Source of the DNA: Corynebacterium cystitidis
GTDB taxonomy: Bacteria; Actinomycetota; Actinomycetes; Mycobacteriales; Mycobacteriaceae
Length of the DNA stretch: 64,000 nucleotides
Assembly (NCBI RefSeq): GCF_900187295.1
Contig: NZ_LT906473.1
Location: 558,001 to 622,000 of the forward strand
Reading direction: 5' to 3'
Shown here: positions 1,518 through 6,355 of the stretch, one piece after another
How positions within the stretch are numbered: position 1 is the stretch's first letter
Layout of the letters: every line of letters starts with the position of its first letter
Translations under genes and position numbers: made by a program
The notes under the pieces: model-generated
What the model was told of the DNA's origin: nothing
The model's input: the letters and a program-made list of their open reading frames with translations, nothing else
Databases searched by the model: none

Positions 1518-1559
1518 CCGCCTGGGCCCCACTTGTGGGTGTGGCCCAGGCGGTTTCTC
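1518..1559. terminator. eno intrinsic terminator
   Basis: An 11-bp GC-rich stem (CCGCCTGGGCC at 1518-1528 with GGCCCAGGCGG at 1543-1553) is followed by TTTCTCT on the plus strand. It lies 43 bases after the eno stop and probably also stops transcription coming from the minus strand. A degenerate copy occurs at 4568-4604. Confidence 0.85.
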
Positions 1560-2375
1560 TATGGGGTTGGTGGTCGAAGGTTGCTTAGCCGTGGAGTGGT
1601 ACTGATTGCTTCGAAATGATCTCGAAGTTGCGGGGCCATAGCGTTGAGCAATTGAACCATATCGTTATATCGTGCTGGGATATTGACGGTTAGTAAGTGT
1701 TCAGCGTGAGCGACTCGGTTTCTTAAAGCATGAATCCGGTCTACTCTGTCATAGACTCCGCGTCCGTTCGGATCGGCCTGTAAGTTGGGGAATGAGTCTC
1801 GAATGTTTGCGTCCCAGAGTTCGTGTCGGATGCGGCTAAGGTTTTGTTCCCTCTGTAATTCTGTTTGATAATCGGGAGCAGAACTTGAGACGGGCTTTGT
1901 GTGAGGGAGAAACTGTTTCCAGTCACCAAATGTCATCTGGGCTACAAGGTCATCGTGAGAGATTGCGGAATTTTTACGGGGGTGGGAGGGGGCTCGTTTA
2001 CTCCGGGCTCTTCTAGCACTTCTGTCTAAGTATCGTCGCTTATCGCTGGGGATCCAGAGCAGCTAGGTCTCCACGTGGGCGATCGATCCAGCGCCACGTG
2101 GCGCCTGGTTCACCCTGTCTATTCCACTCTCTTAGTGCTGTGTCGATCTTCTGCCTGAGGCTGACTTCCACAAACGCGAGGTCTTTTGAGAAACTGGCTG
2201 ATAATTCTGCGTTCCACTCATATAAGGATGCTGCCAGAAACTTATTACCGTTGGCATGGGCTAGGTATTGTCCGTTTCTCGCCGGAGATCCTTGATCGAA
2301 AACGGCACTGCGTAAATCAAATTCCATATTCTTAGTAGACTTTAAATTGTTAGAATATTCCAGCGGAATCGACAT
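1559..2375 (-). pseudogene. Abi-family (abortive-infection-like) protein, frameshifted
   Basis: Two minus-strand frames together resemble one Abi-family protein. The N-terminal part (2375 down to about 2050) has YLAHANGNKFLAASLYEWN and AFVEVSLRQKIDTALREWN. The C-terminal part (about 2050 down to 1559) has SHDDLVAQMTFGDWKQFL and ALRNRVAHAEHLL, the R-x4-6-H type motif shared with HEPN-like Abi proteins. The frames meet near 2040-2060, where the first stops at DPQR and the second is open through PSDKRRYLDR, so a one-base shift separates them. The start at 2375 is the likeliest ATG but has no clear ribosome site; 2327 is an alternative. It is probably a dead defence gene, though a sequencing error cannot be excluded. 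Confidence 0.6.
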
Positions 2376-2433
2376 CACTGTAGGGTTCGTGGTAGTCTGC
2401 ATTGTGCAGGGCGCATCGTTGCCCATTTTCCAA

Positions 2434-2461
2434 GAGGCCCCCTCGTTCGCGAGGGGGCCTC
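2434..2461. terminator. Perfect GC hairpin with TTCG loop
   Basis: A 12-bp perfect stem (GAGGCCCCCTCG with its complement) closes a TTCG tetraloop. It lies just upstream of the Abi-like frame and before the ATPase gene. No T-run follows on either strand, so terminator function is uncertain; it may be a structured insulator. Confidence 0.45.
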
Positions 2462-2706
2462 CTCGTATTCCTAGCGGACGATAGGGCTTGAGGGTTTTTG
2501 TCATCCCTGAAGGATGCGTTCGATTGTTGAACCACCTATGCACATCGACAGTCAATTGTCGTCCAACGTTCAGTTCGCGGACTGGGTGGTTGCTTTTCTA
2601 ACCAGGGCAATTGACCGGCAGTTCATCGAAAACTCCAAGTACAAATGGGTCGCCGATTTGTAGAGTGGAGATTTGATAGAGTGGGAACGAATTTAAGGAG
2701 GAGATT

Positions 2707-4071
2707 GTGGTTTCTCCCGTAATCACTGAACTGCGTCTGACATCGTTTAAATCTTTTCGCAACGAGGTTCTTCCTCTCGATCCCGTGGCATTTCTCATTG
2801 GACGTAATAGCTCGGGAAAATCTAACGCGTTCGATGCTTTGGATGTTTTGGCTCGACTTGCGGAGGGCGATGAGCTAACAGATTCGCTTGATGGGCGTAG
2901 CAGTCAAAGAAAGCCGGTGCGGGGACGCTCCAGCGGGTGTGCGCCACACGGTGAGACTTCTTTTGCGTTAGGGTGCACGGTTGTTGTTGGGGATGACCAT
3001 TTTAATTTTGATGTCGAAATTGCCGTTGATGATTATCTTCGGGTTATTTCGGAAGAGTTGACAGGCCCGGGTACGGCGGTAAAAAGCGGAAAACGAGAGA
3101 TTGGGGCTACGCTTTATAAAACGAACCCAGCTTCTGGCCAGAAGGTAGGCATCGATGTTCAGATCTATAACGGCAAGGAAGGGCGCAACCCCTCTGAGAT
3201 GATGAGGGATTCGAAGTTGGTTTTAACCCAGATTCCATTGCATGTCCCGGGCAAGAACCGGGCTGAAAGGTCCGTGCTTGACGCTGTTAATCTGGTGCGG
3301 ATGGCCTTACGGTCGGTATTTCACCTAGATCCTGTTCCACATTTGATGCGTGAATTTGTCCCTGAATATGATGTTGATCTTCGTCGTTCGGGCGAGAACG
3401 TTTCTGCTGCGTTGAAGGAAATGCGTGAAGAAGATCCAGAGGCTTTCAACAAGATTGAGTCATTAGTGAAGGAAGTGGCCGATGAAACCGTCGTGGGGAT
3501 CGATTTTGTTGAATCTGATTTGCAGGACGTGATGATTGCCCTTCAGGAAAAGCTATGCAGGCGAGTTAATGCCGTCGATAGCTCCGCGCAGCGTACACCT
3601 GCCAGAGAGATGAGCGATGGCTTATTGCGTCTGATTGCTATTGCTACCGCTCTACAGTTGCCCCCTAGTCAGCTTTCTATTGAGGGGGCTAGCGATCGGG
3701 AACAGAAGCATCAACCGGTTGCTCACGTTGTCATTGAAGAAATTGAAAACGGCTTGCACCCATCTCAGACTGGTCTGCTTTTAGATCTGGTGAGAGATAG
3801 CCACGAGACTTTAGGCACGCGGATGTTGTTGACCACTCATTCGCCTGCGCTGCTTGATGCTATTGATGGTGAATTAAATCGGAGCGTGGTCGTGGTATAT
3901 CGCGATCCAGAAACAGGCTGGAGTAGGATCAAACCGCTTGTTGAGCTCGATAACTATGTTCCCGCAGTCGCTCAGGGCAGCTTAGGTGAGGCGGCTACCG
4001 CAGGCACGCTTATCGACGAATCACTTGCTAATCAAGATTATTCGGCACTAGATGAACTCCTGGGTATCTAA
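2707..4071 (+). CDS. AAA/ABC-type ATPase of the AAA_15/AAA_21 (OLD-like) group, probable defence ATPase
   Basis: Cytoplasmic 454-residue ATPase. The N-terminus LTSFKSFRNEVLPLD is typical of SMC/RecF/OLD-like ATPases. Walker A is GRNSSGKS at about residues 32-39, an ABC-signature-like segment MSDGLLRLIAIATAL lies near 300, Walker B is VIEEIENGLHPSQ and the switch histidine is in TTHSPALLD. No nuclease domain is fused to it. The GTG start at 2707 follows a strong AAGGAGGAG site. Its stop overlaps the start of the next gene by one base, so the two are translationally coupled. ATPases of this group act with a separate effector in PARIS-, AbiL- and Septu-like defence; here the partner is a PIN protein. 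The molecular role is inferred. Confidence 0.85.
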   Translation: MVSPVITELRLTSFKSFRNEVLPLDPVAFLIGRNSSGKSNAFDALDVLARLAEGDELTDSLDGRSSQRKPVRGRSSGCAPHGETSFALGCTVVVGDDHFNFDVEIAVDDYLRVISEELTGPGTAVKSGKREIGATLYKTNPASGQKVGIDVQIYNGKEGRNPSEMMRDSKLVLTQIPLHVPGKNRAERSVLDAVNLVRMALRSVFHLDPVPHLMREFVPEYDVDLRRSGENVSAALKEMREEDPEAFNKIESLVKEVADETVVGIDFVESDLQDVMIALQEKLCRRVNAVDSSAQRTPAREMSDGLLRLIAIATALQLPPSQLSIEGASDREQKHQPVAHVVIEEIENGLHPSQTGLLLDLVRDSHETLGTRMLLTTHSPALLDAIDGELNRSVVVVYRDPETGWSRIKPLVELDNYVPAVAQGSLGEAATAGTLIDESLANQDYSALDELLGI

Positions 4072-4550
4072 TGACGGTTAACAAGCCTCCAATTTTGTTC
4101 ATCGATACTTCCATTCTGACCAACCTTCTTAATGTTCCTGGAAAGAATCAAGACCGAGCAGAGGTCAACGAGGACTTTAAGCTGTATCGGCAACAGGGTG
4201 CACAGTTCATACTTCCTATTACTGCAGTGATCGAGACGGGAAACCACATAGCGCACCTTCCTGACGGAAAGATGCGTCGGGAAATAGCGGAAAAATTCCG
4301 CGCTATCCTGCAACAGGTCGTGGACGGAAAAACTCCGTGGCTATTGCATGATTTCGATTGGGATAAGGATTTCCTCAAACTTTTTCTGGCTGGTGCATCT
4401 TCTGGTTCGAGTTATGTTGAGCTGGCTGTTCAGCAGGTCGGAGCGGGGGATTTGTGTATTTTAACCGAAAAGGACATTTTTGCCAGGAAAGATATCCCGG
4501 GAGAAGTGGAAGTGTGGACGCTTGACCATGGCCTTGATGCTCGTACATAG
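4071..4550 (+). CDS. PIN-domain protein, probable nuclease partner of the preceding ATPase
   Basis: The 159-residue protein opens with ILFIDTSILTNLL, the first PIN strand with its metal-binding Asp (D12). It continues with ITAVIETGNH (E55) and VGAGDLCILTEKD (D127), then a final WTLDHGLD. This spacing of acidic residues fits a PIN ribonuclease. The ATG overlaps the ATPase stop (TAATG), so the pair is one operon. A PIN fold alone would suggest a VapC toxin, but no antitoxin gene is present. Coupling to an AAA ATPase makes an activated effector more likely. This is inference from arrangement. Confidence 0.72.
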   Translation: MTVNKPPILFIDTSILTNLLNVPGKNQDRAEVNEDFKLYRQQGAQFILPITAVIETGNHIAHLPDGKMRREIAEKFRAILQQVVDGKTPWLLHDFDWDKDFLKLFLAGASSGSSYVELAVQQVGAGDLCILTEKDIFARKDIPGEVEVWTLDHGLDART

Positions 4551-4567: not shown

Positions 4568-4604
4568 CCGCCGGGCCACACTTGCTGGCGGACCAGGCGG
4601 TTTC
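4568..4604. repeat. Degenerate second copy of the eno terminator
   Basis: The segment with GGGCCACACTTG and CCAGGCGGTTTC aligns with the eno terminator at 1518-1556 (GGGCCCCACTTG, CCAGGCGGTTTC) with several mismatches. It marks the right edge of the Abi/ATPase/PIN insertion and may still serve as a weak terminator for the PIN gene. Confidence 0.5.
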
Positions 4605-5425: not shown

Positions 5426-6226
5426 CTAGGGGTTTCCGCTGTCCTGCGGAAACAGGAGCGTGTAGATTCCCACACCAAAGATATCTCCAAGCACATGGGC
5501 AAGCACAAAAGGATAAATCCGCTGGCCCGGGCACCTCACAGCAGCCAGGTAAAAAACAGTCCCCAGGCCAGCTCCGATCAACGCCGCGTTAAATAAACCT
5601 TGGTAGGTGTGGAAGGCCGTTCTCGCAACCACCGAATATAGGTAGAGCAGTCGTGTGCTTTTGGTGGGCAAAGACAGGCAGAGAACAAGGAAGAAGAACT
5701 CTTCATAGAAGCCGTTGAGGATTGCATAGGCAATCAGCGAGGGGGAGACGCTTATCGACGCCGCCGTCTCGCTTGCATCATCGTCTTTGGCGGCACCTTC
5801 AATGTGGGTTTCCTCGCATTTTGTGAACAGCCCATAAGCGGTGTAGGCGGCGTCGAAAAGCACTCCGCACGCTGCGAACAGGCCGAGCCCGATAGCGGTG
5901 CCGCGCAAGGTGGGGCGCAGGTTCCACGGGAGCAGGTCGATTTTGCGCAGGCTGATATATGCGGTTGCGCCTGCGAGTTGGAGGGACTGGAGTCCGAGGG
6001 CTCGCCAATTGTCCTGGGCTGTGAATTCCGGCACGGTGGGCGCGATCGAGTCTTGTGAGCTAAGAAGGCTGTAGCTAGAGCTGGCGATGGCTGGCCCGAA
6101 CATGATCCCTGTGAGGGTGCAGAGATCGCCCCAGGTCATTGCGGTGTGGGGCAGCCGCCGGTCTGTTTGTCGGGGCCAGAGCAAACGGCGCGTTCTTCTT
6201 AATAGTGCAGGTAGTCTCAGAACCAT
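5426..6226 (-). CDS. CPBP-family intramembrane metalloprotease (CAAX/Abi type)
   Basis: A multi-pass membrane protein of about 266 residues. CPBP motifs are visible: NGFYEEFFFLVL (the paired glutamates), RTAFHTYQG (motif 2 with His) and FVLAHVLGD (motif 3 His and Asp). The Arg that usually follows the EE pair is replaced by a hydrophobic residue, so activity is uncertain. The start at 6226 (MVLRLP) is chosen because it leaves the inverted repeat at 6321-6355 upstream; a longer reading from 6352 would translate that repeat. Members process peptides or bacteriocin-related products or act in immunity; no substrate can be named. Confidence 0.75.
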   Translation of the reverse strand: MVLRLPALLRRTRRLLWPRQTDRRLPHTAMTWGDLCTLTGIMFGPAIASSSYSLLSSQDSIAPTVPEFTAQDNWRALGLQSLQLAGATAYISLRKIDLLPWNLRPTLRGTAIGLGLFAACGVLFDAAYTAYGLFTKCEETHIEGAAKDDDASETAASISVSPSLIAYAILNGFYEEFFFLVLCLSLPTKSTRLLYLYSVVARTAFHTYQGLFNAALIGAGLGTVFYLAAVRCPGQRIYPFVLAHVLGDIFGVGIYTLLFPQDSGNP

Positions 6227-6300
6227 AGTCGGCTTGATCTTACGGCGGGTGAAAATCCTAGGCAAATTGCTCAGGGATTGCTTAGGCCACGATATGTACA

Positions 6301-6355
6301 CCGAATCGACACATCCGCTCAATATGTCGATTTTTCCGCTGAAAATCGACATATT
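6301..6355. promoter_or_regulatory. Perfect inverted repeat and a third half-site, probable operator
   Basis: A 14-bp perfect inverted repeat (AATATGTCGATTTT at 6321-6334 and its complement at 6342-6355, 7-base spacer) lies about 100 bases upstream of the CPBP gene. A third AATCGACA half-site lies at 6304-6311. Three copies of TGTCGATT in 55 bases look like a regulator binding region. No regulator gene is adjacent. Confidence 0.45.

What the first reader, a model, noticed from the sequence alone, without database searches (positions are those of the whole stretch)
2707..4550. AAA ATPase translationally coupled to a PIN-domain protein: candidate defence pair
Seen: an OLD/AAA_15-type ATPase with intact Walker A, signature, Walker B and switch His, overlapping by one base a 159-residue PIN protein with D12, E55 and D127. 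No antitoxin is present. Known: similar ATPases work with TOPRIM (PARIS), HNH (Septu) or DUF4276 partners. Inferred: the PIN protein is an RNase effector held inactive until the ATPase senses infection. An ATPase-PIN pair is not a system I can name.
Basis: partly seen in the sequence, partly recalled or inferred. Interest (0 to 1): 0.72.

Follow-up and report, generated by a model that had tools for sequence, protein, structure and literature searches.

The report
ATPase-PIN ribonuclease defence candidate pair
Two overlapping bacterial genes encode an ATP-driven switch protein and a toxin-like, probably RNA-cutting protein that travel together as a mobile unit; the pair is real and probably anti-viral, but it is already catalogued as a defence candidate.

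The parts
2707..4071 (+). PDC-M07A: OLD/PtuA-like ABC ATPase, 454 aa; Walker A 32-39, signature SDG 303-305, Walker B EE 344-345, switch H378
   Evidence: (PDLC04389, 1.1e-176)
4071..4550 (+). PDC-M07B: PIN-fold protein, 159 aa; acids D12, E55, D127, D152; motif ETGNHIA 55-61
   Evidence: (PDLC04394, 2.2e-53)
2695..2701 (+). Shine-Dalgarno-like AAGGAGG before the GTG start of the ATPase
   Evidence: sequence
4069..4073 (+). TAATG stop-start overlap joining the two genes
   Evidence: sequence
1543..1557 (+). left 15-nt direct repeat, in the 3' arm of the hairpin 1517-1554 after eno
4590..4604 (+). right 15-nt direct repeat (14 of 15 the same); with the left copy the only two exact matches of GGNCCAGGCGGTTTC in the 3.01 Mb genome
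1559..2555 (-). degraded gene in two frames (ORFs 2040-2555 and 1559-1936) inside the same accessory block; C piece has a weak HEPN_Swt1 similarity
   Evidence: (E 0.04)

Best explanation
The pair is a PDC-M07 member: a two-gene, probably anti-phage module. The ABC ATPase (PtuA/AriA-like) is the sensor and switch; the PIN protein is a VapC-like, metal-dependent ribonuclease and the effector. In an uninfected cell the RNase is silent, either bound by the ATPase or lacking its active complex. On infection a phage protein, or a change in nucleotide or nucleic-acid state, alters the ATPase dimer or oligomer, and the PIN protein cuts tRNA or rRNA, halting translation and phage growth. Shown here: gene structure, family membership, intact motifs, predicted folds, paired inheritance, accessory location. 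Inferred: infection sensing, RNA as target, translation arrest, complex formation.
Confidence: 0.65

Rival explanations
1. A toxin-antitoxin or addiction module: the ATPase is simply the antitoxin of a VapC-like toxin and the pair persists by stabilising its DNA, with no role in phage defence.
For: VapC fold, order restrainer then toxin, presence on plasmids and in a 3 kb accessory block.
Against: No VapB-like partner seen; the ATPase keeps its ABC catalytic residues in 76 aligned homologues; some copies lie inside restriction operons.
Confidence: 0.15
2. The PIN protein cuts DNA (invading or nicked) and the ATPase loads it, as reported for one Septu.
For: ATPase resembles PtuA, Rad50 and SMC heads; one E. 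coli Septu is reported to target nicked DNA (PMC11555353, passages); human exonuclease 1 appears once, at Foldseek rank 45, E 0.64, probability 0.13.
Against: Nearest folds of the PIN protein are VapC/FitB toxins, VapC20 first; no flap nuclease among the 50 rows.
Confidence: 0.08
3. A cellular, non-immune role such as RNA turnover or cell-cycle control, as for the archaeal OLD ATPase Cran1.
For: An OLD ATPase with a cell-cycle role exists (PMC12796447, abstract start in search listing).
Against: Sporadic: a PIN hit in 4 of 101 related genomes, the window's own included and one a fragment; 3 of 396 in the phylum sample and 4 of 296 in the class sample, own included; absent between eno and ftsB in 20 of 20 same-genus genomes.
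Confidence: 0.07
4. A decaying remnant without function in this genome.
For: The neighbouring gene in the same block is degraded.
Against: Both genes are full length with the conserved residues in place.
Confidence: 0.05

Closest known systems
PDC-M07 (PADLOC-DB 2.0.0 phage defence candidate)
   Same: Both proteins match its A and B profiles strongly; genes adjacent
   Different: No difference found; this is a member. I found no test of the family, but the founding preprint is not held
OLD-ABC + PIN-endoRNase dyads of BREX neighbourhoods (PMC12839542, passages)
   Same: Same pair of domain types
   Different: No PglZ match in this genome; whether their PIN family is the same was not tested
Septu / retron PtuAB
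   Same: ATPase: first Foldseek rows and best PDB sequence profile hit are PtuA
   Different: PIN fold in place of HNH PtuB; the pair has no reverse transcriptase gene in it
PARIS (AriA/AriB)
   Same: ABC ATPase plus small nuclease; AriA profile matches at 3.2e-28
   Different: PIN in place of TOPRIM AriB
VapBC toxin-antitoxin
   Different: Partner is an ATPase, not VapB

Membership tests
PDC-M07 | ATPase matches PDC-M07A profile | tested here: met
   PDLC04389 1.1e-176, residues 1-454
PDC-M07 | second protein matches PDC-M07B profile | tested here: met
   PDLC04394 2.2e-53, residues 7-158
PDC-M07 | the two genes adjacent | tested here: met
   one-base overlap; PADLOC's own system rule was not available
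PDC-M07 | protects against phage | not testable with these tools
   no experiment on it found in paper searches (open-access library; founding preprint not held)
Septu | PtuA-like ABC ATPase | tested here: met
   first Foldseek rows are PtuA; tied with Rad50/SMC in Z
Septu | HNH PtuB partner | tested here: not met
   partner is a PIN fold
PARIS | TOPRIM AriB partner | tested here: not met
   partner is a PIN fold
Gabija | TOPRIM domain fused to the ATPase and a GajB helicase gene beside it | tested here: not met
   no TOPRIM match at E 1 in the 454 aa ATPase; the next gene is PIN
MADS mad3 | score over NCBIfam cut-off 420 bits | tested here: not met
   57.9 bits
VapBC | VapC-like PIN fold | tested here: met
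VapBC | VapB antitoxin gene beside it | tested here: inconclusive
   the partner gene is the ATPase; short ORFs of 30-76 aa near by were not searched
BREX-associated OLD-ABC + PIN | BREX core gene pglZ near by | tested here: not met
   no PglZ match at E 0.001 in the genome
ABC/OLD ATPase | Walker A, signature, Walker B Glu, switch His | tested here: met

The most novel reading that the evidence does not exclude
PDC-M07 is a further effector branch of the PtuA/AriA sensor ATPases, in which a VapC-like PIN RNase has replaced HNH or TOPRIM, so a classical toxin fold has changed its keeper from VapB to an infection-sensing ATPase and kept translation RNA (tRNA or 23S sarcin-ricin loop) as its target.
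Probability: 0.4. Interest if true: 0.6.

Novelty: new member of a known kind. Interest (0 to 1): 0.38.

Why it matters
The pair would link toxin-antitoxin RNases and ABC-ATPase immunity: the same sensor chassis with HNH, TOPRIM or PIN nucleases. By the organism names the family occurs in Actinobacteria, Cyanobacteria, Proteobacteria, Firmicutes and Bacteroidota. It is small (under 2 kb) and easy to test, and a named candidate for which I found no mechanism gains a concrete one to check.

Tried and rejected
The idea of an unnamed system was dropped (PADLOC names both parts). The idea that the pair belongs to a BREX island here was dropped. The idea of a fixed, universal PIN partner was weakened by L105, whose M07A-like ATPase (5.6e-67) is followed by a 193 aa protein with no Pfam match at E 0.01 and no PADLOC match at 1e-10; it looked TOPRIM/DUF4276-like to my eye only. 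Pfam scans of 80 PIN homologues: 23 match PF01850 and 18 PF16289, best E 0.0013 and 0.00025, weak. No match in 50,697 phage records for either protein, nor in the E. coli genomes for the Vibrio pair at blastn sensitivity. A PIN profile against PDB sequences gave one row, a protein kinase at E 0.73; the fold evidence carries that point. In the VIA look the ATPase is tied with Rad50 and SMC heads, so PtuA is favoured by Foldseek rank and profile, not by Z. Two integrase probes found none in L021-L101. Neighbour scan: 94 neighbours from L060-L101 (L061, L075, L092 and some outer genes left out), crude gene calls, most Actinobacterial loci not scanned, so it gives examples, not an enrichment; no matched control was run. 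The ATPase profile search scored only 5 candidates per genome, so it can miss copies. A Walker B pattern had a wrong spacing and matched nothing; it is not used. No complex was modelled.

Full report
What is there. The two ORFs stand at the given coordinates, 454 and 159 aa, overlapping by one base in a TAATG, with AAGGAGG before the GTG start. The ATPase has the full ABC set; the PIN protein has D12, E55, D127 and also D152. The window lies in a single-contig 3.01 Mb genome. I infer Corynebacterium: six of the 80 loci, including the best one, are from that genus. The gene order eno-ftsB-DUF501-ppx (names recalled, not from a call) is kept in 20 of 20 same-genus genomes read.

What it is. PADLOC-DB gives PDC-M07A for the ATPase (1.1e-176; next differently named family HEC-01A at 1.8e-37) and PDC-M07B for the PIN protein (2.2e-53). 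PDC means phage defence candidate: non-validated systems found by guilt-by-embedding and added in PADLOC-DB 2.0.0 (PMC10855318, passages; PMC11514479, passages); validation is pending for most (PMC12988326, passages). A full-text search for PDC-M07 returned 0 papers. Caution: the preprint that I take to be the source, Payne et al. [quoted passage not shown] Which PIN system that is I could not see, so I cannot exclude a test of PDC-M07 there. [quoted passage not shown]

How tightly the two go together. The PIN alignment A1 found 371 relatives in the genome collection; the best 80 were kept. In 79 of 80 an ATPase ORF lies directly upstream on the same strand; in L063 the PIN gene begins at base 2 of the held sequence. 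The one viral contig found, with a terminase gene upstream, has the pair too. Of 10 plasmid records with a PIN hit I opened 7; all 7 have an ATP-binding protein gene just upstream, overlapping. Pairwise distances of the two proteins over 88 loci correlate at 0.94, and at 0.78 among the 3181 pairs below 50% ATPase identity; no permutation of 2000 exceeded 0.17. Shared species history inflates this. In the reverse direction, an ATPase profile in 296 genomes of the phylum hit 7 at 1e-30 (5 candidates scored per genome). Four hold close relatives: the window's own, two with broken copies whose PIN is broken too (G240, G271), and one (G373, L105) with another partner.

Setting. Here the pair and a degraded gene form a 3.05 kb block between eno and ftsB. 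A 15-nt direct repeat brackets it (1543-1557, 4590-4604), with no third exact match in the genome; the left copy is the 3' arm of a hairpin after eno. The nearest relative by enolase (G027, 97% identical) has one such terminator and no block. The pair is missing at this site in 20 of 20 same-genus genomes read, chosen from 60. A PIN hit occurs in 4 of 101 related genomes, the window's own included and one a fragment with a stop. GC is 0.50 and 0.475 against 0.59 for eno. On Vibrio campbellii and Photobacterium damselae plasmids the pair lies between hsdS and hsdR. Type I restriction-like genes lie within 8 kb in L066, L072, L088 and L091, and JetC, HmaC, AbiLi and HEC-01A stand next to it or one gene on in L099, L077, L085 and L068. 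Other neighbours are ordinary, such as tRNA synthetase or ammonium transporter genes, and no control set was scanned.

Mechanism. Shown: genes, motifs, predicted folds, pairing, accessory location. Inferred: the ATPase senses infection and governs the PIN RNase. Closest models differ. AriA sequesters AriB, which cuts tRNA once a phage protein is sensed (PMC12409363, passages). PtuA and PtuB of retron-Eco7 are toxic only together and deplete tRNA-Tyr (PMC11555353, passages); Septu EcB88 needs both active sites and cuts tRNA-Tyr in the variable loop (PMC13096335, passages). A VapC-like nuclease on such an ATPase fits tRNA or rRNA cleavage. One small asymmetry fits a costly PIN: three loci (L017 a plasmid, L038 and L075 chromosomal contigs) have a damaged PIN gene beside a full-length ATPase, and none of the 79 assessable loci shows the reverse, although loci were found through the PIN motif. 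Assembly errors could explain some.

Other PIN-based defences exist: DefensePredictor validated DS-3 and DS-5, whose PIN catalytic residues are needed (PMC13092281, passages); in those passages DS-3 is one protein and the DS-5 partner is a DUF5830/AcrIF4-like protein, not an ABC ATPase.

Verdict. A real, well-conserved pair; a new member of a named candidate family for which I found no test; moderately interesting because the mechanism is directly testable.

Noticed in passing
window 1559-2555 (-): A degraded gene in two frames upstream of the pair; both pieces match proteins on some of the same actinobacterial plasmids (for example Rhodococcus sp. DK17), and the C piece has a weak HEPN_Swt1 match.
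   Followed up: partly
window 1543-1557 and 4590-4604: 15-nt direct repeat with exact pattern matches only at these two places in the genome brackets the accessory block; the left copy is in the hairpin after eno, suggesting insertion into a terminator.
   Followed up: partly
window 5426-6352 (-): Rce1-like CAAX protease gene, not found by tblastn in the eno-ftsB regions of 20 same-genus genomes: a second accessory gene at the same site.
   Followed up: no
L105 1501-3483: M07A-like ATPase followed by a 193 aa protein with no Pfam or PADLOC match instead of PIN: a possible further partner type.
   Followed up: partly
L017 5992-6474: Anabaena cylindrica plasmid copy in which the first catalytic Asp of the PIN protein is Tyr while the ATPase is full length.
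   Followed up: no
L101 4420-6393: The pair in a viral contig downstream of a terminase large subunit gene, upstream of a DUF3800 gene: a phage-borne copy.
   Followed up: no
L118 and L128, between eno and ftsB: Other inserts at the same site in same-genus genomes (by eye an HNH-containing ORF in L118 and an IS3-like transposase in L128; L120 has a gap of similar size, not opened): a variable site.
   Followed up: partly
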